A DNA stretch of 64,000 nt from Kaistella pullorum (GTDB lineage Bacteria; Bacteroidota; Bacteroidia; Flavobacteriales; Weeksellaceae), in NCBI RefSeq assembly GCF_014837035.1, contig NZ_JACSPS010000002.1, positions 62,001 through 126,000 of the forward strand, given 5' to 3'. The notes beneath the pieces are model-generated. The model saw only the letters and a list, made by a program, of their open reading frames with translations, did not search any database and was not told where the DNA came from. Positions 12,314-28,760 of the stretch are shown here, piece by piece (the first letter of the stretch is position 1; every line of letters begins with the position of its first letter). Both the position numbers and the translations under genes were made by a program.

Positions 12314-12907
12314 CTAATTATTTTCCGTGCGGAGCACCACTATTTCCGGGATTTTATACTCGATCAGGCTCAGCATAAGTTGGTCGCGCTGTTTTGCGAG
12401 CGCTTTGGCCGCAGATTTCGGGTCGCCGTAAATTCTTTTGGCGTACGCTAAAATAAGGAAGTTTTTCGCGGTTCCGTTGTTGTAAGGCTTGAAACGGTAG
12501 ATGTTGTATTCTACGAAGGCGTCGCCTTTATCGGGCATTTCAGATATAAAATAATCAACTACAAACTCGCTGCCGTCCGGACTTTCAGTTACGTTCACTT
12601 TCGCCAACCTGTCTGTTTCTGCCCGTTTTTGAATGGATTCCACTTTTTGTCTTACGGCCAGTTCAAGATCGATTTCTTTCGTAAAATAAGAAAAATCGAG
12701 GATTTGGTTGAAGTCTTCAATTCGCTCGTCGCGCGGCATATATTGCTGGCGAAGCAGTGTCTTTGATGCTTCTTTGCTCCAGGAAAGGAAAAATTCAGTG
12801 CCATCCAGCTCGATTGGACCTGGAATTGAGAGCAAATCCCGCGGTTCCTGTGCATTTATGCTGACGAATGTGCTTATAAATATCGCAAACAGCAGTCTTT
12901 TAAACAT
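12314..12907 (-). CDS. Exported protein of unknown function
   Basis: A 197-residue protein with a clear Sec signal peptide (MFKRLLFAIFISTFVSINAQ, cleavage probably after 'NAQ' or before 'QEPRD'). The mature part has mixed alpha/beta character, with no motif I recognise. It starts 8 bp after the stop of the DUF349 gene and is followed by a terminator, so the two form one transcription unit. Location is probably periplasm or outer membrane. Confidence 0.75.
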   Translation of the reverse strand: MFKRLLFAIFISTFVSINAQEPRDLLSIPGPIELDGTEFFLSWSKEASKTLLRQQYMPRDERIEDFNQILDFSYFTKEIDLELAVRQKVESIQKRAETDRLAKVNVTESPDGSEFVVDYFISEMPDKGDAFVEYNIYRFKPYNNGTAKNFLILAYAKRIYGDPKSAAKALAKQRDQLMLSLIEYKIPEIVVLRTENN

Positions 12908-20442: not shown

Positions 20443-20841
20443 ATGAAAATAGAACATATCGGCATCGCCGTCAATTCCCTCGGCACTTCCGATGATTTGT
20501 TTGAGCGATTGCTCGGAAAGAAAAACTACAAACAGGAATCGGTTGCGCGGGAAGGCGTCACCACCTCGTTTTATGAGGTCGGCGAAAGCAAGGTTGAACT
20601 GCTGGAAGCCAGCAGCGAAGATAGCCCAATCGCAAAGTTCCTTTCAAAAAAAGGGGAGGGCATCCATCATATTGCATTCGGTGTAGATGACATTTATGCT
20701 GAGATTGAAAGACTTAAAAAAGAGGGATTCATCTTCATCTCCGAAGAACCTAAAGACGGCGCCGACAACAAGCTCGTGGTTTTCCTGCATCCGAAGTCCA
20801 CCAATGGCGTCCTGATCGAATTATGCCAGGAAAAAGCCTGA
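20443..20841 (+). CDS. mce: Methylmalonyl-CoA epimerase
   Basis: Interconverts the R and S forms of methylmalonyl-CoA between propionyl-CoA metabolism and succinyl-CoA. The 132 residues form two VOC-fold modules: it starts 'MKIEHIGIAVNSL' (metal-binding His) and contains 'VELLEASSEDSPIAKFL', 'GIHHIAFGVDDI' and the C-terminal 'LVVFLHPKSTNGVLIELCQ' with the metal-binding Glu. Length and motifs are standard for mce. No other gene of the pathway lies in the window. Confidence 0.93.
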   Translation: MKIEHIGIAVNSLGTSDDLFERLLGKKNYKQESVAREGVTTSFYEVGESKVELLEASSEDSPIAKFLSKKGEGIHHIAFGVDDIYAEIERLKKEGFIFISEEPKDGADNKLVVFLHPKSTNGVLIELCQEKA

Positions 20842-20849
20842 AAAATATT

Positions 20850-20878
20850 TTGGTAATCTATAAAAAAGCTTATTTTTG
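20850..20878 (+). promoter_or_regulatory. Promoter for the CAU tRNA
   Basis: A -33 TTG (20850-20852) and a -7 box TATTTTTG (20871-20878) separated by 18 bp, which fits the Bacteroidota primary sigma factor consensus. The tRNA begins 39 bp further on. Confidence 0.65.
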
Positions 20879-20917
20879 CACCTCATAAAAACAGCCGGGA
20901 TACATCCTGATGTTTTT

Positions 20918-20991
20918 GGCCTTGTAACTCAGTTGGTTAGAGTAGCTGACTCATAATCAGCAAGTCCTTGGTTCGAGCCCAAGCTGGGCCA
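20918..20991 (+). tRNA. tRNA with CAU anticodon (elongator Met or Ile2)
   Basis: A cloverleaf can be drawn: acceptor GGCCTTG/CTGGGCC (one U-U mismatch), D stem ACTC/GAGT, anticodon stem GCTGA/TCAGC with loop CTCATAA, variable AAGTC, T stem CTTGG/CCAAG with loop TTCGAGC, discriminator A. CCA is not encoded. Both elongator tRNA-Met and lysidine-modified tRNA-Ile2 use this anticodon and loop, so the amino acid is left open. Confidence 0.9.
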
Positions 20992-20993
20992 CA

Positions 20994-21231: not shown

Positions 21232-21669
21232 TTAACTTGCTGCATCCCCGACGTTACTTTTTATTTTCTGTTGAATAAGTTCGATGGTTTCATCAATTCG
21301 ATTTTTTTTAAGCTCACACTCCCACACAGTTAAAACCTGCCAACCAGCAGCTAAAAGCTTCCGTTCATTATCTAGATCGCGCCTGATATTCCCGTTGATC
21401 TTTGCTGTCCAGAATTCAGTCCGGGTTTTGGGAGTTACAAAATACCTGCAGTGTTCATGTCCATGCCAGAAACAACCATGTATAAAGACTGCAGTTTTAT
21501 ATTTTTTGAAAACCAAATCCGGTTTCCCGGGAAGATTTTTGACGTTCAGTCTGTATCTGAATCCTGCAGCAAACAGTTTTCCACGTAACAACATTTCAGG
21601 TTTGGTATTCTTACTCTTGATTCTGCTCATATTAAAGCTGCGCTGTGCAGGGGTATGTCTGTCTGCCAT
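21232..21669 (-). CDS. vsr: Very short patch repair (Vsr) endonuclease
   Basis: Nicks DNA beside T:G mismatches that arise when 5-methylcytosine is deaminated, starting repair back to C:G. The 145 residues contain the family start 'RSFNMSRIKSKNTKPEMLLR', the catalytic Asp51 in 'GKPDLVF', and 'VFIHGCFWHGHEHC' (61-74) with His64 and His69 and the zinc-binding cysteines, matching E. coli Vsr numbering. It is transcribed away from the C5 methyltransferase gene, as expected for a partner that limits the mutagenic cost of cytosine methylation. It belongs to the accessory island. Confidence 0.95.
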   Translation of the reverse strand: MADRHTPAQRSFNMSRIKSKNTKPEMLLRGKLFAAGFRYRLNVKNLPGKPDLVFKKYKTAVFIHGCFWHGHEHCRYFVTPKTRTEFWTAKINGNIRRDLDNERKLLAAGWQVLTVWECELKKNRIDETIELIQQKIKSNVGDAAS

Positions 21670-21712
21670 GTTACATTTATAATCTTTAACAGCAAAAACA
21701 GTGCGCGGTTTT

Positions 21713-21720
21713 CAAATATA
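21713..21720 (-). promoter_or_regulatory. -7 box for vsr
   Basis: TATATTTG on the minus strand, 44 bp before the vsr start, in the divergent spacer. No TTG at suitable spacing was seen. Confidence 0.45.
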
Positions 21721-21753
21721 CTGGCACTTTTGTACTATATAGTTTTAGTGTAA

Positions 21754-21783
21754 TTGCTTCGCACCTATCTTTTAATATCTTTG
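21754..21783 (+). promoter_or_regulatory. Promoter for the methyltransferase-helicase-ATPase run
   Basis: TTG at 21754-21756 and TATCTTTG at 21776-21783 with 19 bp between them fit the Bacteroidota -33/-7 consensus. This leaves a leader of about 90 bases before the methyltransferase ATG at 21878. Confidence 0.6.
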
Positions 21784-21877
21784 CCACAGTCTCAAATAAA
21801 GTAGCTACAAGGTCAAAATAATTGATAAATATTTTTTTTGATTTTGTGAGTTTCTTTTTACTAATTTTAAAAGCAGC

Positions 21878-22972
21878 ATGCACAAATTTAAATTTATAGA
21901 TCTCTTCGCAGGTATAGGAGGATTTCATATCGCGATGCACGAAAATGGTGGCGAATGCGTATTCGCCTCAGAAATAGATAAGTTTGCACGGCAGACCTAC
22001 GAGCATAATTTTAGCAAAATATCGCCTGAGTTATTTACTGGGGGACATTTTAACCAGGATATTACGGATTCGGCACTCGTTTACTCCAATATTCCGGATT
22101 TTGATGTACTGTGCGCAGGGTTTCCTTGTCAGCCGTTTTCTCATGCAGGTTTAAAGAAAGGTTTTGATGATACGCGTGGAACATTATTTTTTAATATTAA
22201 AGAAATCATTCGGGCGAAAATTGAAGCTAACAAACTTGATAAAAAAGTTGCAATTCCAAGAGTTCTTCTTTTGGAAAACGTAAAAGGCTTTAGAAATCAT
22301 GATAAAGGAAATACATACAAGGTTATTAAGCATACACTAAATGATCTTGGTTATGAGGTGGCGGCCGAAGTATTAAACAGTAAGCATTTTGGCGTTCCCC
22401 AGAACAGGGAAAGGATATTCATTGTAGCTTGGCATAGGGATTCAGTTAAAAAAAATGATTTTAAATTCCCTTTTGGTCTCACGCAGAAAGATGAAGTGAT
22501 TTATGAAAAAGAGAAACGCGATGAACTGGCAAAAAAAATAAAGGTTGGCGATATCCTGTTAACAAACAAGGAGTTGCAGCAATTTGAAAACAGGGATAAT
22601 AAAACTTACACCATTTCTGAAAAATTATGGGAAGGGCATCAGAGAAGAAAGATTATGCATGCAGAAAAGGGAAATGGTTTCGGCTATTCAATATTTAATT
22701 CTCAATCATCTTATACAAGTACCATCTCTGCAAGATATTATAAGGATGGAAGTGAAATCCTCATCGAACAAAAAGGCGTAAAAGGAAAACCTGACCGTCC
22801 CCGAAAACTTCACCCAGTTGAAGCTGCAAAACTGCAGGGATACCCTATTGACAGCTGGTATGAAATTCCTGTATCCGATAACCAAGCGTACAAGCAGTTT
22901 GGAAACAGTGTTTCTGTACCGGTAGTTAGCACTCTGGCTTTTGAAATAAAAAATCAGCTATTGGATTTGTGA
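21878..22972 (+). CDS. DNA (cytosine-5) methyltransferase
   Basis: Methylates carbon 5 of cytosine in a specific DNA site, using S-adenosylmethionine. The 364 residues contain the ordered C5 motifs: I 'DLFAGIGGFHIAMHENG' (8-24), IV 'GFPCQPFSHAG' with catalytic Cys84, VI 'LENVKGF' (132-138), VIII 'PQNRERIFIVAW' (174-185), then a target recognition region of about 120 residues, and IX/X 'HPVEAAKLQGYP' and 'GNSVSVPVV' near the end. The recognition site cannot be read from sequence. It leads the run of island genes, 35 bp before the helicase gene, and presumably marks self DNA for the system. Confidence 0.96.
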   Translation: MHKFKFIDLFAGIGGFHIAMHENGGECVFASEIDKFARQTYEHNFSKISPELFTGGHFNQDITDSALVYSNIPDFDVLCAGFPCQPFSHAGLKKGFDDTRGTLFFNIKEIIRAKIEANKLDKKVAIPRVLLLENVKGFRNHDKGNTYKVIKHTLNDLGYEVAAEVLNSKHFGVPQNRERIFIVAWHRDSVKKNDFKFPFGLTQKDEVIYEKEKRDELAKKIKVGDILLTNKELQQFENRDNKTYTISEKLWEGHQRRKIMHAEKGNGFGYSIFNSQSSYTSTISARYYKDGSEILIEQKGVKGKPDRPRKLHPVEAAKLQGYPIDSWYEIPVSDNQAYKQFGNSVSVPVVSTLAFEIKNQLLDL

Positions 22973-23007
22973 ATCACCGGTAACTTATAAATGGAAATCA
23001 TTAATAT

Positions 23008-24960
23008 ATGAATCAGGTTATAGTCTTAAACAAGGAAATAAAAAAGATTGAGTTTGCAAACAAAACTTCTTCTTTAGTGCCTTTAACCCCTATGGACCTC
23101 TACAACCTGTTGCATATTAAGAAGGATATTTTTGGGATTTCTTACAGAGAAATTATAATTGATCAGGAAGTATCAGCATTAAAGGTAGTGAAATCACAAA
23201 ATGAATTGGTAGTAAACGTGGACATAGGTTCAGAGTTCGCATCTTTATCATTTGAATTAACTTCGGTTTTTAAAACAAGGCAGCTTAATGTGGAGGAGGT
23301 TATTTTTATAACCGAAAACAATTACCTGATTAAAAATGGAGAAGTATTGTCGGTGGATAAAGAATCTGTTTTGTTTACCGCTGGTTTATTGGAGAAGCTT
23401 GATGCTTCCGGCAATTTACCCCTGCTTCTTGCGCTTGAACTTTATTCACAACGTGACAAATACTCTTGCTTAAAATTTTCAAGCGAGCAGCTTGATTTTA
23501 AGCAGATTTTAGAAAGTAATTTATATACCGGTAATTCATCTCTATTTATTAGGGACCTGTATGACTATCAGAAAGATGGCTTAAAGTGGTTGCAGTACTG
23601 TTGTATAAACAAAATCGGCGGTATTCTTGGCGATGATATGGGTTTGGGTAAAACGGCACAGATTATAGCATTAACTGCCTGGCTTCTGGAAAGGAAGATT
23701 TTTGAAAATATATTAATTGTTGTGCCCAGTACGCTTCTTGAAAACTGGAAAAGAGAATTTTTATTTTTTTCCCCTGCTTTGGAGCCATATGTACACCATG
23801 GCTCTGTCAGAACCGGCTCAGTAGAATTACTTAAAAGCAAAGATATTGTTATCACGTCGTACTCAATGATCATTAATGACCAGTATTTATTTAACAAATT
23901 AAAATGGGGTGCGATAATAATTGATGAAGCCAGCTTAATTAAAAATCCAGATTCGGAAAGAAAGATCTCTTTAAGTAATATAGAAGCTGAAGTAAAAATA
24001 GCAATGACAGGAACTCCGGTCGAAAATTCATTACTCGATCTGTGGTCATTAACAGACTTTGTATTGCCTGGTTATTTCGGCACACGGGAATCTTTTACTA
24101 ATAAATTTATAAAAAAAGATATCGAGCAGACTTTAATAGAGTCGGACCTGTCCTCGCTCCGCAATGAAACATCTTTTATTATGCTTCGGCGAAAAAAAGA
24201 AGATGTATTGGATTCGTTGCCGGATAAAATTGATATACACCAGGCTCTCGAAATGTACGGCAATGAAGCCTCATTGTATAATAATGAGCGTGAGTCTATA
24301 TTAGCCCGGATAAAAACGGAAAGTCCGGCTAATGTTTTTACACTGATTCAAAATCTTAGACAATATACAACCCACCCTTTACTGCTCGATTCACCTTCAT
24401 TTGAAAATGCTGATGTAAAACAGCTGTCGAACGCCAGTTCAAAGTTTACCAGAACGATTGAAATACTTGATGAAATCAGGATCCGTAATGAAAAGGTTAT
24501 AATCTTCACTGAATATCTGAAAATGATAGATACTTTCAAAAGAGTATTGGAGGAACATTATGCAACCACTATTTTCACTATAGACGGCAGAGTCGAAGTT
24601 TCGGAAAGACATAAAAGAATCGATGATTTTTCTGCATTCGAAGGCTTCAGTATAATGGTTTTAAATCCTAAAACCGCCGGTATGGGGCTGAATATCACCG
24701 CTGCAAACCATGTTATTCATTACACTCGTCAGTGGAATCCGGCACTGGAGGAACAAGCTACTGCCAGATCATACCGCAATAAACAGGAAAAAAATGTTAA
24801 TGTTTACTATTTATATTACGTCAATACAATAGAGGAAATGATAGATAACCGCCTGCGAAATAAACGACAGCTTTCGGGTGAGGTTGTAACTTCAACGTCC
24901 GATGATTTATCTTTTGACGACTACCTCTCTTCACTAAGCAAAACACCAATTATAAAATAA
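23008..24960 (+). CDS. SNF2-type superfamily II helicase/translocase
   Basis: A 650-residue ATPase of the SNF2 group expected to move along double-stranded DNA. Residues 1-180 match nothing I recognise. The motor follows: Walker A 'GDDMGLGKT' (208-216), motif II 'IIDEASLIKN' (DEAS at 306-309 instead of DEAH), 'TGTPVEN' (334-340), 'LRRKKEDVLDSLP' (393-405), motif V 'PKTAGMGLNIT' and motif VI 'QATARSYRNKQ' (583-593). It ends 5 bp before the GHKL ATPase gene. In restriction systems such motors couple target recognition to cleavage or loading. That role here is inference from the neighbours. Confidence 0.93.
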   Translation: MNQVIVLNKEIKKIEFANKTSSLVPLTPMDLYNLLHIKKDIFGISYREIIIDQEVSALKVVKSQNELVVNVDIGSEFASLSFELTSVFKTRQLNVEEVIFITENNYLIKNGEVLSVDKESVLFTAGLLEKLDASGNLPLLLALELYSQRDKYSCLKFSSEQLDFKQILESNLYTGNSSLFIRDLYDYQKDGLKWLQYCCINKIGGILGDDMGLGKTAQIIALTAWLLERKIFENILIVVPSTLLENWKREFLFFSPALEPYVHHGSVRTGSVELLKSKDIVITSYSMIINDQYLFNKLKWGAIIIDEASLIKNPDSERKISLSNIEAEVKIAMTGTPVENSLLDLWSLTDFVLPGYFGTRESFTNKFIKKDIEQTLIESDLSSLRNETSFIMLRRKKEDVLDSLPDKIDIHQALEMYGNEASLYNNERESILARIKTESPANVFTLIQNLRQYTTHPLLLDSPSFENADVKQLSNASSKFTRTIEILDEIRIRNEKVIIFTEYLKMIDTFKRVLEEHYATTIFTIDGRVEVSERHKRIDDFSAFEGFSIMVLNPKTAGMGLNITAANHVIHYTRQWNPALEEQATARSYRNKQEKNVNVYYLYYVNTIEEMIDNRLRNKRQLSGEVVTSTSDDLSFDDYLSSLSKTPIIK

Positions 24961-24965
24961 ATTTT

Positions 24966-26621
24966 ATGACAGATTCTTTAGACACACTGGATGAAATGAA
25001 ACCATCGGCCGCCCGCCTTGTAGAAAGCTTAAGAGATACCGGCTATATCTTTACAACCTCGGTCGCTGATATTGTGGATAATTCAGTATCAGCGGACGCA
25101 GATCAAATTGAGATCATATTGCAAACAGATTTCGGTAATAATCCCTCATTGTGGATTGCTGATAATGGTAACGGTATGGACGAAGCAGCTCTGGAAGCAG
25201 CTATGATTTATGGGTCTCCGCTAAGACCGAGTCCCAAATCACTTGGAAAGTTTGGTATGGGTTTGAAGACAGCTTCAACTTCTTTTTGTCGCAAATTAAC
25301 TGTGATTTCTAAAAAGGACAATCAGTTATCAATAAGGCAGTGGGATCTGGATACAATTAAAAAATTAGACAAGTGGATATTGTTGAGACCCGAAATGGAA
25401 GATTATGAGGAAGAAGTAGCTTTTTTAAATAAGGTGACAGTAGGTAAAAATGGAACCATTGTCATCTGGGAATCAATCGACCGCCTTGTAAGATCGACAG
25501 GTGACGGTTCTCTAAAGAAGCAGCTTGATAAAATTGAACAGGAATTACGCGAACATTTATCGGGGGTCTTTTTTAATTTTTTAAGTGGAAGCAGTGGTAA
25601 TCCTAAGATAGAGATCTTTGTAAATAAAACTCCGCTAGAGCCTTGGGATCCCTTCTGTCGTTGGCTTAATGATGACGGTGCGAAAAGGGTGGAAATTCAC
25701 GAAAACAAGCCTTTTCAAATAACGGAAATGAAAGATGGCGAAGAAGAAGTGATCGGTGAATTCTATGTTAATATTTATATTCTCCCTACTAAAAGTGAAC
25801 TTAATACCGAGGAGGAAAAAAAAGCAAGATATGGTTTGGATAATCAAGGCTTTCACGTTTTCCGCGAAGGTCGGATGATTTATTCAGGGGGATGGCCCCA
25901 TAGGTTATTTGTCAAGGACCCTCACTTAAATTTGATTAGGGTGGAGTTATTGTTCGATCACAAACTGGACCACTACTTTCAAATAGATATTAAAAAATCA
26001 CGGATAGATCTACCGAAGGATTTACGCGAACACTTGAAAAAAGTGATTGCACCGGCAAGAAATGAAGCGAACCGCAGGTATCGTGTGGGTACTGCAGGTA
26101 AGGTGAAAAATAATAATGAGCTCTTAAATGAACAGCATGCAAAGTCCAGTACTGCGATCGAAAAACATCATGCATCAGCAACCAGCGGATCTGTCGTGAA
26201 CAATATTGATACGAGCAGTGGTGAAGCTGAAATCAAAAATAAGTTCGGTACGACGAGGGTTAAACTACAGTTCGATTTCGAAGACTCCCGCGTAATTGAA
26301 ACAAAAGAAAATCTGACGGATGGTGTCCTGTGGAGTCCCGGTCTGGTGGACGGAAACAGACATGCCGTTTTTATCAATCAGTCGCATGAATTCTACAAAA
26401 AGTTCTATCTGGCTAACAAGGATAATTCAGCCTTGATTATTGCGATGGATTCATTATTGTGGAGCCTTGCTGAAGCCGAGCTGAGTGTAATGAGTGATAC
26501 CGTAAAAAGAAATCTTGAAGATATGCGCGTCAGTGTATCACGATCATTAAGAACATTGGCAGAAGAGCTTCCTGAAATAAAGGAAGAGCTTAATTATGAA
26601 TCCACTGAATCTATTGAATGA
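24966..26621 (+). CDS. GHKL (MORC/MutL-like) ATPase with extended C-terminus
   Basis: A 551-residue ATP-binding protein. GHKL motifs are clear: N-box 'ADIVDNSVSADAD' (Asp35 and Asn39; most MutL/MORC proteins have Glu at the first position), G1 'IADNGNGM' (64-71) and G2 'LGKFGMGLKTAS' (93-104). A transducer-like region follows, with the basic segment 'KKSRIDLP' (343-350). Residues 375-430 look like a linker. The C-terminal part from about 452 ('DGVLWSPG...FINQSHEFYKKF...VSRSLRTLAEELPE') resembles the C-terminus of the 321-residue protein two genes on. Members of this group dimerise on ATP binding and clamp DNA. The stop overlaps the HNH gene start (ATGA). Confidence 0.92.
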   Translation: MTDSLDTLDEMKPSAARLVESLRDTGYIFTTSVADIVDNSVSADADQIEIILQTDFGNNPSLWIADNGNGMDEAALEAAMIYGSPLRPSPKSLGKFGMGLKTASTSFCRKLTVISKKDNQLSIRQWDLDTIKKLDKWILLRPEMEDYEEEVAFLNKVTVGKNGTIVIWESIDRLVRSTGDGSLKKQLDKIEQELREHLSGVFFNFLSGSSGNPKIEIFVNKTPLEPWDPFCRWLNDDGAKRVEIHENKPFQITEMKDGEEEVIGEFYVNIYILPTKSELNTEEEKKARYGLDNQGFHVFREGRMIYSGGWPHRLFVKDPHLNLIRVELLFDHKLDHYFQIDIKKSRIDLPKDLREHLKKVIAPARNEANRRYRVGTAGKVKNNNELLNEQHAKSSTAIEKHHASATSGSVVNNIDTSSGEAEIKNKFGTTRVKLQFDFEDSRVIETKENLTDGVLWSPGLVDGNRHAVFINQSHEFYKKFYLANKDNSALIIAMDSLLWSLAEAELSVMSDTVKRNLEDMRVSVSRSLRTLAEELPEIKEELNYESTESIE

Positions 26622-27388
26622 GTTCTTTTAAATCCTACTGTGAAAAAAAATTTCCCGAAAACTGGGAAATCCTCGATAAAGATGGAGGATTGTTTCAGTT
26701 CCGTGATAATTCCATAGCTAAAGGAACAGGTTTCCTTGTGATGGTACTGGAAGAAAGTTCAAAATATGAAGTACAGCTAAAATTTGAAAATTTTGCGAGA
26801 ACTCTGTCATCTCATGCAGCACAAAGCCTCGCTGACCCTGCAAGTCCGCTAAAAAATTTGCTGGAAATATATGAAAACATTTCTGTTATAGTTCACAAAC
26901 ACTACATTGAAAAAAATCTAGATCCTTCAACACGCAAATTTGAAAATTGGGATTTTAATTTAATATATAAAAAGAGAGGCGGCGGCGATCATGCAGATAG
27001 TTTTTCGGATATTTTAATATCCTTTATTTTAAACATCTTTCCATACAACGTCGAAGCAGAGGAAGAGGGATCAGCTAAATCAGACTTGCTAACACGATAC
27101 GAGCGTAGCCACAGAAACAGGTCACTATGTATTGCTTACCATGGTTACAATTGCAAGGTTTGCGGATTAAGAATGAAGGACTTATACGGTGATATTGCCA
27201 GGGATTACATACATGTTCACCATTTGAATCCGATTTCAGAAAACGGCGTAATTAAACCCGACCCGATTAAAGATTTCGTTCCCCTTTGTCCTAACTGTCA
27301 CGCAATAGCGCATTTAAAAAACCCGCCACTGACAGTACAAGAAATTCAACTCAAAATTAAAGAGAATGGAAATACACACGCTAAATAA
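26618..27388 (+). CDS. HNH endonuclease with uncharacterised N-terminal domain
   Basis: A 256-residue protein, the likely nuclease of the island. The C-terminal HNH domain shows zinc-finger pairs Cys179/Cys182 and Cys224/Cys227 and the catalytic segment 'YIHVHHLNPIS' (His199, His201, His202) with 'CPNCHAIAH' (His228, His232), as in McrA-like HNH enzymes. Residues 1-160 form a separate mixed alpha/beta domain I do not recognise, possibly for target or modification sensing. Its ATG overlaps the stop of the GHKL ATPase gene and its end overlaps the next gene by 23 bp, so the three are probably made together. Confidence 0.92.
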   Translation: MSSFKSYCEKKFPENWEILDKDGGLFQFRDNSIAKGTGFLVMVLEESSKYEVQLKFENFARTLSSHAAQSLADPASPLKNLLEIYENISVIVHKHYIEKNLDPSTRKFENWDFNLIYKKRGGGDHADSFSDILISFILNIFPYNVEAEEEGSAKSDLLTRYERSHRNRSLCIAYHGYNCKVCGLRMKDLYGDIARDYIHVHHLNPISENGVIKPDPIKDFVPLCPNCHAIAHLKNPPLTVQEIQLKIKENGNTHAK

Positions 27389-28331
27389 ACACGACTTCAA
27401 AAAATATCTGCTTGCGCAATTACCTGACAGCAGGCAGGAAGAATTAATATTCTGGAAAAAAGCTATCCCTCTTCCTGTAGATCTTGTTTACAAAATATTT
27501 GATTCCAGAGGCGAGCTCTTTAAAATATATCTGGATCACATTTCAGCAGTTACGTTATACTTTTTTGCAGCTGAGTCTGAAAAAACAGATTACATTCAGC
27601 AAATAAATAATCTCCCCAATTCCGGTACCGAACTTTTAAGTGACAGATTGAATGATCAGTTCGAAAAATATTATTTTGACTCTGATATTTCCGCTTTAAC
27701 TGCAACACTCGCGGAAAAATTATTTGTTGTGGAGTATAAATTCTCCGTTGAAGATTATATTCATGCCCTTTCCCACGAAGGTCGGAAGTACCGCCGGCTT
27801 TACGTCCCCCAAAAAATAAAAGAAAGCCTACGAGAGTACCATCCGGCAATGCTTAATTATATAGGAGTTTCGAACGGAGATATGTTCGGAAACATAGTTG
27901 CAGATCATCTGGGAGTATACAGGAGTGGTTTTTCAGATGCTTTTGCTGCTATATTTAATAAATTACTTGATTTTGTTGTTGCTAAGACTTATGAGCACAA
28001 GGTAGATATTTCTGCAGCCTCCGGAATAAGAATCACTCAGGTCACAGAACCGCCGCAGCAATACTTAAAACCTGAAACAGGAACCGTTGCAGACGGAAGT
28101 TTATGGGAACCACGTTACCGCGATGCGAAATCTACTTTTATACTCAACGAAAGACATCCGTATTTGGAGTTAATTGATAAAAAATCCGGCATTGAAGTTT
28201 TAGCTGATCTGGCAGGGCAGTCTGCATTGATAGAAAATGAAACGCTCCAGGATTCCAAAGCTAAAATTCTGGAAAACTTTAGACAGGAAATTTCCCGTAA
28301 GCTCAGATTAATCGCTGAGAATCCTACTTAA
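27366..28331 (+). CDS. Island protein of unknown function sharing a C-terminal module with the GHKL ATPase
   Basis: A 321-residue soluble protein without a family I recognise. Residues 1-220 are helical and acidic, with no nuclease or ATPase motif that I can see. Residues about 241-320 ('VADGSLWEPRYRD', 'FILNERHPYLELID', 'ILENFRQEISRKLRLIAENP') parallel residues 450-536 of the GHKL ATPase ('TDGVLWSPGLVDG', 'VFINQSHEFYKKF', 'LEDMRVSVSRSLRTLAEELP'). I infer a shared domain, perhaps for hetero-oligomerisation. The gene overlaps the HNH gene by 23 bp and is the last of the run. It could be a specificity or scaffold subunit. Confidence 0.85.
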   Translation: MEIHTLNKHDFKKYLLAQLPDSRQEELIFWKKAIPLPVDLVYKIFDSRGELFKIYLDHISAVTLYFFAAESEKTDYIQQINNLPNSGTELLSDRLNDQFEKYYFDSDISALTATLAEKLFVVEYKFSVEDYIHALSHEGRKYRRLYVPQKIKESLREYHPAMLNYIGVSNGDMFGNIVADHLGVYRSGFSDAFAAIFNKLLDFVVAKTYEHKVDISAASGIRITQVTEPPQQYLKPETGTVADGSLWEPRYRDAKSTFILNERHPYLELIDKKSGIEVLADLAGQSALIENETLQDSKAKILENFRQEISRKLRLIAENPT

Positions 28332-28332
28332 T

Positions 28333-28760
28333 TATGTTGACGTTGCCCACTTCTTTCGACAAAGCAACAAAGAGTTCCAAGATATTAGTTTAAAATTTAT
28401 AATGAGAAATCACTTGAACTCAGCAGCGAGGTGGTGAACGCAAAATATCTGCTGCTTCGGCGGAGCGGACATACTTACGCTTCGGATCTCTTCGAAATAA
28501 TAAGTAAAGGCCCAAAAGTATTCTCGCGCCAGCATCTGAAGGAACTGAATTATCCAGCTTCCAAAAGTCCGAAAGACCATTATCTGGCCATCAAAATCCG
28601 CAAGGTCCCCGATCCCGAGTTTGAAAATGTACGCTGGGATTTCATACGACTGGAAGCTTACCAAAAGATTCAACGTGAAGAGCCAAACCCCTACTCTAAG
28701 GCAGGCCTTCCGTTTACGGTGTCGCTTACTGAACTGATGAGGACCAAAACCAAATTGTAA
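28333..28760 (+). pseudogene. Probable 3' remnant of an unidentified gene
   Basis: From 28431 an ATG-type frame gives 109 residues ('VVNAKYLLLRRSGHTYASDLFEIISKG' region is at its start). Sense-like sequence continues upstream of that start: the same frame reads 'KIYNEKSLELSSE' back to a TAG at 28386-28388, and the adjacent frame before it reads 'NYVDVAHFFRQSNKEFQDIS' back to the end of the 321-residue gene. One lost base near 28390 would join them. I therefore read it as the C-terminal part of a longer gene, cut at its 5' end and frameshifted, marking the right edge of the island. Alternatively the 109-residue protein is intact and small. Family not recognised. Confidence 0.5.

What the first reader, a model, noticed from the sequence alone, without database searches (positions are those of the whole stretch)
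21232..28331. Candidate ATP-dependent restriction or anti-phage system: C5 methyltransferase, SNF2 helicase, GHKL ATPase, HNH nuclease, unknown protein, plus Vsr
Seen: five same-strand genes, the last four joined by a 5 bp gap, a 4 bp overlap and a 23 bp overlap, with vsr diverging. Known: GHKL (MutL/MORC-like) ATPases occur in restriction-modification loci together with a helicase, a nuclease and a C5 methylase (discussed by Iyer, Abhiman and Aravind in 2008 on the origin of MORC ATPases), mostly with Z1-type helicase modules and PD-(D/E)XK nucleases as I recall. This locus has an SNF2 motor, an HNH nuclease and an extra protein that I cannot assign. Inference: methylation marks self, and the ATPase, helicase and nuclease act on unmodified DNA.
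Basis: partly seen in the sequence, partly recalled or inferred. Interest (0 to 1): 0.85.

Follow-up and report, generated by a model that had tools for sequence, protein, structure and literature searches.

The report
Methylation-linked SNF2–MORC DNA-restriction operon
A bacterial gene cluster that probably marks the cell's own DNA by methylation and uses two ATP-driven proteins plus a nuclease to attack unmarked DNA; the general type was predicted in 2008, but this version carries an extra protein that shares its tail with one of the ATP-driven proteins.

Summary
In detail: vsr | dcm–SNF2–GHKL–HNH–321-aa protein, with the stated gaps and overlaps. The GHKL protein fits the MORC motif. What is new here is the 321-aa protein ("U321"): a helical N-domain without a fold match, plus a C-terminal domain homologous to the MORC's own. 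In 8 of 8 loci found it follows SNF2–MORC(–HNH). It was never found with the EcoRII-N/B3 protein that marks the sister lineage (17 of 17 loci, U321 in 0); the lineages separate in MORC and SNF2 trees. The nuclease varies: HNH in 5 of 8, AAA+LlaJI in 2, none recognised in 1. The window's genome shows no EcoRII domain, so HNH is the only operon nuclease recognised. Most likely an ATP-dependent restriction system with Dcm methylation as self mark; U321 is inferred to dock on MORC by the shared tail. No activity is shown. New variant of a known kind.

The parts
20918..20992 (+). tRNA-Met (CAT) just before the low-GC stretch
   Evidence: ARAGORN; a tRNA-Met follows the same epimerase gene in 19 of 20 congeners
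21232..21669 (-). Vsr, very-short-patch repair endonuclease
   Evidence: Pfam Vsr 5.8e-35, NCBIfam TIGR00632 155.8 bits over cut-off 97.85; aligned with E. coli Vsr
21878..22972 (+). C5-cytosine methyltransferase (Dcm family)
   Evidence: Pfam DNA_methylase 2.3e-89; with L011, L075 and L012 it lacks the NSLGRxHGF-like insertion of E. coli Dcm and differs in the variable region
23008..24960 (+). SWI2/SNF2 superfamily-II ATPase
   Evidence: Pfam SNF2-rel_dom 4.8e-62 and Helicase_C 1.2e-17; conserved blocks in alignment A6
24966..26621 (+). MORC GHKL ATPase
   Evidence: Pfam HATPase_c_3 1.7e-30; GFHVFREGRMI fits GhXhhpXXRhl of Iyer 2008; best solved-structure matches human MORC2, 3.4e-5
26286..26567 (+). 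C-terminal domain of the MORC protein (residues ~441-534), shared with U321
   Evidence: U321 family profile hits it: E 3.6e-11 in a whole-genome search
26618..27388 (+). HNH endonuclease with an unassigned N-terminal region
   Evidence: Pfam HNH 24.6 bits over cut-off 21.4; profile of 11 such proteins matches the HNH region of EcoKMcrA 6ghc, E 3.5e-8
27101..27328 (+). HNH motif region of the endonuclease (residues ~162-237)
   Evidence: His and Cys residues invariant in 11 of 11 aligned homologues
27366..28331 (+). U321, MORC-tail protein
   Evidence: no match over a curated cut-off in Pfam or NCBIfam, none in PADLOC or PHROGs; 8 loci
27387..27995 (+). U321 N-terminal mostly helical domain (residues ~8-210)
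   Evidence: AlphaFold2 pLDDT 82.8, pTM 0.85 for residues 1-215; no Foldseek match with E <= 0.001 in PDB or BFVD
28059..28328 (+). U321 C-terminal domain homologous to the MORC C-terminal domain (residues ~232-321)
   Evidence: hhalign probability 97, E 7.9e-11 against the MORC alignment

Best explanation
It is an SNF2-type MORC restriction-modification operon of the 'U321' lineage. Inferred working: Dcm methylates the host's sites as self mark, and Vsr repairs the T:G mismatches that arise from deaminated 5-methylcytosine. The SNF2 motor and the MORC ATPase engage unmodified incoming DNA; MORC acts as a GHKL clamp that loops or holds DNA, as proposed for this family in 2008. U321 joins the complex through its MORC-like C-terminal domain, and its helical domain provides recognition or coupling. 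The HNH protein cuts. Shown here: the genes and domains, their conserved order, the shared tail domain, the lineage split, and no EcoRII match in the genome. Inferred: anti-phage function, methylation as self mark, complex formation, and the role of every step.
For: Same operon type predicted as R-M by Iyer 2008. A dcm lies within 3.4 kb of SNF2–MORC–U321 in 7 of 8 loci, within 0.12 kb in 5 of these; the eighth genome has EcoRII–dcm–vsr at another place. In the window and L011 dcm precedes SNF2 on the same strand by 35 and 26 bp. No EcoRII-C or EcoRII-N match in the window's genome, while other genomes in the same searches ring, so HNH is the only operon nuclease recognised. Motifs of SNF2, MORC and HNH look intact (motif roles recalled). 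The U321 family profile hits the MORC tail in 4 of 4 genomes with clear U321 (3.6e-11 to 2.2e-7); hhalign 97 %. A second protein with this domain is in 8 of 8 U321 loci and 0 of 17 B3 loci. Low GC, tRNA neighbour, patchy spread. MORC is related to MzaB of the MZA defence system (PADLOC, 172 bits).
Against: No phage, methylation or nuclease data. The Dcm site is unknown. HNH is missing from 3 of 8 U321 loci, so it is not obligatory. L010 has no nuclease or methylase gene recognised in its stretch. dcm is on the opposite strand to the core in 4 of the 7 loci that have it (L008, L009, L012, L075). The U321 N-domain has net charge -6, which does not favour DNA reading. NCBIfam places the MORC far below its MzaB cut-off (196 of 850 bits). 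HNH also matches Zorya ZorE2 and type IV enzyme profiles weakly (0.001 and 5.7e-5). The core could act without the methyl mark.
Confidence: 0.6

Rival explanations
1. Two neighbours, not one system: a Dcm–Vsr maintenance pair beside an independent SNF2–MORC–HNH–U321 defence module that senses invading DNA by structure or replication and does not read methylation.
For: Core without dcm in the stretch in L010; dcm on the opposite strand to the core in L008, L009, L012 and L075; dcm differs in type between U321 loci while U321 stays conserved.
Against: dcm within 3.4 kb in 7 of 8 U321 loci and recognised or annotated in all 17 B3 loci; same strand run in the window and L011.
Confidence: 0.2
2. 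U321 is itself the effector enzyme or toxin, and HNH or the AAA–LlaJI pair are accessories.
For: U321 is in 8 of 8 loci while the nuclease varies (HNH 5, AAA+LlaJI 2, none recognised 1); 46 invariant residues in 6 intact members include H137, K141, R144, D172, N176, D180, R186, D191.
Against: No family match to any enzyme and no fold match (inconclusive). The tail domain speaks for a complex partner. Broken in 2 of 8 copies (L011, L012).
Confidence: 0.15
3. A methylation-guided DNA repair machine: MORC as a MutL stand-in, Vsr and HNH as nickers, SNF2 as remodeller.
For: Vsr nearby; Iyer 2008 mention that some versions might have been recruited for mismatch repair.
Against: Very patchy spread (1 of 320 family genomes), island features; the related mzaABCDE is called a validated defence system in PMC9523054 section 11.
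Confidence: 0.05

Closest known systems
MORC operons, second type (SWI2/SNF2 + HNH or EcoRII-like), Iyer, Abhiman and Aravind 2008 (PMC2292703, section 3 parts 1-3 of 4 read)
   Same: MORC ATPase with the family motif, SNF2 helicase, HNH nuclease, cytosine methylase, Vsr; laterally mobile
   Different: No VP1/RAV (B3) protein, which some of their loci have; instead U321. The parts read do not mention a MORC-tail partner protein; the figures and the additional file could not be seen
SNF2–B3(EcoRII-N)–MORC–HNH modules beside dcm and vsr, with or without EcoRII (17 loci here, e.g. L007, L036, L040)
   Same: Homologous SNF2, MORC and HNH, same methylase and Vsr company
   Different: B3 protein in 17 of 17 and U321 in 0 of 17; separate branch in MORC and SNF2 trees
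MZA (mzaABCDE) anti-phage system
   Same: MORC/MutL-like ATPase related to MzaB; a helicase, a nuclease, often dcm and vsr nearby; three U321 loci also have a sigma-like gene in front
   Different: Z1 helicase, PD-(D/E)XK and AIPR proteins not found in the window; MORC on another branch
EcoRII / Dcm–Vsr type II R-M
   Same: Dcm and Vsr; an EcoRII gene lies next to the U321 module in L008
   Different: No EcoRII-C or EcoRII-N match in the window's genome
Zorya and other SNF2 defence systems
   Same: SNF2 region scores best against ZorD profiles (450 bits) and HNH weakly against ZorE2 (0.001)
   Different: Only the motor part of ZorD matches (residues 154-630); ZorA and ZorB are not among the rows shown (lists for SNF2 and Dcm capped at 25)
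paraMORC loci with Response_reg_2/HEF_HK proteins near R-M genes (PMC8011034, passages seen)
   Same: HATPase_c_3 protein near C5 methylase, HNH or EcoRII-C and Vsr genes, also in Bacteroidetes
   Different: No hit to those Pfam domains was listed for the window's proteins

Membership tests
MORC family (prokaryotic) | GHKL ATPase domain with conserved motifs | tested here: met
   HATPase_c_3 1.7e-30; conserved blocks in a 7-row alignment
MORC family (prokaryotic) | GhXhhpXXRhl motif in the S5 domain | tested here: met
   GFHVFREGRMI, residues 295-305; by eye against the published motif
MORC operon, SNF2 type (Iyer 2008) | SWI2/SNF2 helicase gene in the same operon | tested here: met
   5-bp gap, Pfam SNF2-rel_dom
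MORC operon, SNF2 type (Iyer 2008) | HNH or EcoRII-like nuclease (often) | tested here: met
   HNH; EcoRII not found
MORC operon, SNF2 type (Iyer 2008) | DNA methylase and Vsr (frequent) | tested here: met
MORC operon, SNF2 type (Iyer 2008) | VP1/RAV (B3) DNA-binding protein (some members only, not obligatory) | tested here: not met
   no EcoRII-N in the genome, no B3 profile match in the window
MORC operon, SNF2 type (Iyer 2008) | works as a restriction-modification system | not testable with these tools
   needs plating or transformation and methylome data
MZA system | Z1 helicase, PD-(D/E)XK protein and AIPR protein | tested here: not met
   profiles built here find none in the window; on six Z1 loci not used to build them they find Z1 and PD-(D/E)XK in 6 of 6 and AIPR in 4 of 6 (the L118 stretch ends at PD-(D/E)XK, the L116 stretch 1.9 kb after it)
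MZA system | MzaB ATPase | tested here: not met
   related (PADLOC 172 bits) but NCBIfam MzaB 196 bits, cut-off 850
EcoRII type II R-M | EcoRII endonuclease | tested here: not met
   0 matches in G000; G203, G273 and G731 ring in the same search; the 14 standard control genomes do not ring
PADLOC-modelled systems | gene-for-gene match to a model | tested here: inconclusive
   protein profiles scanned, system rules not run; no profile hits U321

The most novel reading that the evidence does not exclude
SNF2–MORC–U321 is a self-contained motor core that works with interchangeable nucleases (HNH, an AAA–LlaJI pair, perhaps EcoRII in trans). U321 is a new kind of subunit: a 'headless MORC' in which the ATPase is replaced by a helical domain of possibly new fold, built into the complex by pairing of MORC tails. 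MORC tails would then be an assembly code, giving a concrete model for how MORC ATPases recruit partners.
Probability: 0.35. Interest if true: 0.7.

Novelty: new variant of a known kind. Interest (0 to 1): 0.5.

Why it matters
The paper searches listed under Tried and rejected showed no bench study of a bacterial SNF2-type MORC operon, while eukaryotic MORCs matter in gene silencing and their DNA mechanism is debated (general knowledge). This operon offers a small set of genes in which the job of a MORC tail can be tested by deletion and phage plating. It also shows one motor pair kept while a DNA-binding partner in one lineage stands against a MORC-tail protein in the other, and while the nuclease varies between loci. 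U321 has no PADLOC, Pfam or NCBIfam model in the copies searched.

Tried and rejected
U321 as a known family: Pfam (NES_C_h 0.0067, 17.1 bits, cut-off 26.6, not believed), NCBIfam, PADLOC, PHROGs, PDB sequences, phage records and viral contigs with a 2-row profile gave nothing usable. Searching with the L108 copy added no new locus in plasmids (only L012's) or viral contigs (only itself).

Fold searches: whole U321 model pLDDT 70.7, best Foldseek E 0.77, best VIA Z 4.2, rmsd 3.8, 67 aligned. N-domain model pLDDT 82.8, best Foldseek E 0.57, viral library 0.48, VIA Z 3.1, rmsd 3.6, 88 aligned. Absence of a match does not show a new fold. The tail domain was not modelled alone.

Shared domain between U321 and the MZA proteins Z1, PD-(D/E)XK or AIPR: none. 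The Z1-type MORC tail profile reaches U321 only weakly (best 3.3e-6 in L008, 0.0024 in the window), so the Z1-type tail may be a distant relative of the same domain.

U321 as direct replacement of the sequence reader B3: considered and left open. The exclusivity is 8 against 17 loci, but the two sets are two branches of the trees (U321 branch 91/84 in the MORC tree), so it may be one event, and many B3 loci are close kin (Rhizobiaceae plasmids; L112/L113). The trees hold 13 of the 17 B3 loci: L037 was left out because its MORC is split, L133-L135 were fetched later. The SNF2 tree carries a long-branch warning and unlike letter make-up for six rows, the window's among them.

Profiles: those used were built from some of the loci they are counted on. 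Loci not used in building also gave clear matches (U321: L011, L012, L075, L108; B3: L037, L038, L109-L115, L133-L135). E-values are for sets of 10 and 4 sequences; those are per genome. The control L043 was circular (L043 helped to build the profiles) and was replaced.

Type IV (methylation-dependent) reading from the McrA-like HNH region: rejected as too weak, only the HNH region matches.

Right edge of the island: not found; the window's downstream genes were not found in the stretches of 20 congeners.

Not followed: G412 (E 8.7e-4, six stops inside); the seven weakest MORC genomes (G111, G355, G309, G352, G042, G211, G069); 40 of the 53 plasmid records with a MORC match; three phage records with a partial MORC match; 563 plasmid records with an SNF2 match, examined only where a MORC search had also led. 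Of 22 viral contigs one is U321-type, seven B3-type, nine Z1-type and five showed no labelled helicase.

Literature: eight accepted searches; none of the listings shows an experimental study of an SNF2-type MORC operon or a MORC-tail partner. Searches returned almost only noise. The library holds open-licence papers, so this is not proof; listings beyond those shown and supplements were not read. Seen: PMC2292703 abstract and section 3 parts 1-3 of 4; PMC9523054 section 11 and passages; passages of PMC12137116, PMC8011034, PMC11090510 and PMC12458937; PMC12839542 and PMC9519451 were asked for MORC, GHKL and MutL (and two other terms each) and held none.
Full report
WHAT IS THERE. The six ORFs of the finding are present and open: vsr (21232-21669, -), dcm (21878-22972, +), SNF2 (23008-24960), GHKL ATPase (24966-26621), HNH (26618-27388) and a 321-aa protein, U321 (27366-28331). 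Spacing of the five + strand genes is +35, +5, -4 and -23 bp, consistent with one transcription unit; no promoter claim is made, since promoter-like sites are near chance level (27 found, 22.1 expected, sd 4.8). The block starts about 240 bp after a tRNA-Met gene and is poor in G+C and GC3 (0.32-0.39). None of its genes was found after the epimerase gene in the stretches fetched from 20 of 30 congeners, and U321 has no match in 319 of 320 genomes of the family. It looks like an acquired island; its right edge was not found.

WHAT THE PROTEINS ARE. Pfam assigns Vsr, DNA_methylase, SNF2-rel_dom plus Helicase_C, HATPase_c_3 and HNH above their cut-offs. The GHKL protein carries the published MORC motif (GFHVFREGRMI), and its best solved-structure matches are human MORC2 (3.4e-5). 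A profile of 11 HNH homologues matches the HNH region of EcoKMcrA (3.5e-8). The methylase is of the Dcm family. With those of L011, L075 and L012 it lacks an insertion found in E. coli Dcm and in the methylases of L008, L009, L007 and others, and differs in the variable region; its site cannot be told from sequence here.

U321. No family library names it. A profile of its family hits the C-terminus of the window's own MORC (E 3.6e-11) and of the MORC in the three other genomes with a clear U321 match (2.7e-10, 5.1e-9, 2.2e-7). A separate test gave hhalign probability 97, E 7.9e-11, over U321 235-320 and MORC 444-535; the U321 profile scored 10 of 10 MORCs tested (five of each lineage) at 7.4e-6 or better, and the MORC profile scored 4 of 4 U321 proteins at 3.3e-10 or better (E-values for these small sets). 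So U321 is a MORC tail on a different head. The head was predicted with good confidence although only seven rows were available (pLDDT 82.8, pTM 0.85, mostly helices), and no solved or viral structure matches it significantly. Across six intact members at 29-47 % identity, 46 residues are invariant.

NEIGHBOURHOODS. Searches with U321 or its family alignment brought 7 distinct clear loci, the window included: Litoribacter ruber L008 (the same place as G273/L006), Mucilaginibacter MAG L009, Chitinophaga YR627 L010, Bacteroidetes MAG L011 (same as G509/L076; U321 in two ORFs), Vibrio vulnificus plasmid pFORC54 L012 (MORC and U321 broken) and unnamed G578 L075. A MORC-seeded scan of viral contigs added L108. 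In 8 of 8 U321 follows SNF2–MORC or SNF2–MORC–HNH. HNH is present in 5 of 8. L108 has an AAA_5 gene (I would call it McrB-like; that label is mine) and a LlaJI endonuclease gene instead; L012 has genes annotated as AAA family ATPase and LlaJI endonuclease. L010 has neither in its stretch; its genome holds EcoRII–dcm–vsr elsewhere and no match to the HNH profile. A dcm lies within 3.4 kb of the core in 7 of 8, on the opposite strand in four of these; a vsr was labelled in 4 of 8 stretches (window, L008, L009, L011).

THE SISTER LINEAGE. MORC-seeded searches brought 17 loci of the form SNF2, EcoRII-N/B3 protein, MORC, HNH (gene order varies) with dcm and vsr in the stretch (L007, L036-L041, L109-L115, L133-L135). 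With one set of profiles and thresholds: U321 8 of 8 against 0 of 17; B3 0 of 8 against 17 of 17; HNH 5 of 8 against 17 of 17; EcoRII in the stretch, whole or split, 1 of 8 (plus a stump in L012) against 8 of 17 (plus a stump in L115); a second protein with the MORC tail 8 of 8 against 0 of 17. In L012 one extra tail hit is the MORC's own broken end. Maximum-likelihood trees separate the sets: MORC (36 rows) with U321 91/84, B3 99/96 and Z1-type 100/100; SNF2 (21 rows) with 100/100 (with warnings on long branches and letter make-up). The sets are two branches, so the exclusivity may reflect one event, not repeated swaps.

MORC TYPES IN THE PHYLUM. Of 395 phylum genomes 23 match the MORC profile at 1e-20. 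Three are SNF2-type (G000, G273, G203). Thirteen others were fetched: eleven have a Z1 helicase and two had no labelled partner. The seven weakest were not fetched. Three of the plasmid records fetched were Z1-type too.

HOW IT PROBABLY WORKS. Shown: the parts, their order, their co-occurrence, the shared tail domain, and no EcoRII match in the genome (other genomes ring in the same searches). From established knowledge: Dcm enzymes methylate cytosine; Vsr repairs T:G left by deaminated 5-methylcytosine; SNF2 proteins translocate on DNA; GHKL ATPases of the MORC and MutL kind act as ATP-driven clamps; HNH proteins cut. Iyer 2008 propose DNA looping between recognition and cleavage sites for MORCs in such operons. 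Inferred: unmodified DNA is recognised, SNF2 and MORC move or trap it, U321 sits in the complex by its tail, HNH cuts. The MORC tail is duplicated in its genetic partner, and at the same threshold the tail profile finds nothing in 13 of 14 fetched Z1-type loci of genomes and plasmids (L045 has a weak copy) or in six further Z1-type viral loci, although a Z1-tail profile reaches some U321 proteins weakly. This points to a tail contact typical of the SNF2 class; contact itself is not shown. Because HNH varies and U321 does not, the core looks like SNF2–MORC–U321 with an exchangeable nuclease.

NOVELTY. The operon class was predicted in 2008. The U321 lineage, its MORC-tail architecture and the nuclease exchange were not seen in the papers found by the searches (limits under Tried and rejected). 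PMC9523054 describes a related Z1-type set and says its type II is reminiscent of mzaABCDE. In three U321 loci a gene of about 185 aa precedes SNF2; the L006/L008 copy passes Pfam's sigma-70 region 2 cut-off, those of L010 and L009 do not. It recalls MzaA, a sigma factor; in the window dcm stands in that place. Verdict: a new variant of a known kind for which I saw no bench test.

Noticed in passing
window 20443-20992 and L087-L106: The epimerase–tRNA-Met junction is kept in 19 of 20 congeners; the window's downstream genes (cNMP-binding, HbpS, transthyretin-like, META) were not found in the stretches fetched there. Possible integration hotspot with unknown right edge.
   Followed up: partly
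L012 (plasmid pFORC54) 8392-12988: The Vibrio copy appears broken in MORC, U321 and the AAA (McrB-like) gene; an unbroken relative exists in L108.
   Followed up: partly
L008 4857-5426, L009 4865-5425, L010 5664-6212: A gene of about 185 aa, sigma-70-region-2-like in part, sits just before SNF2; the MZA system likewise includes a sigma factor, MzaA.
   Followed up: partly
L112, L113, L114 near 12680-12834, minus strand: An AIPR-like gene lies directly beside B3-type SNF2–MORC modules in three viral contigs.
   Followed up: no
L045 7809-9404: A Z1-type MORC with a weak copy of the SNF2-type tail domain (1.3e-15), a possible intermediate.
   Followed up: no
L048 7944-9494 and L057 8071-9876: MORC proteins with a tail-domain match but no labelled helicase or nuclease nearby.
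   Followed up: no
L007 5264-5908: Unassigned 214-aa gene after HNH in a B3-type locus; no Pfam family over cut-off.
   Followed up: no
window 28431-28760: Small 109-aa ORF just after U321, no Pfam match over cut-off; may be part of the island.
   Followed up: no
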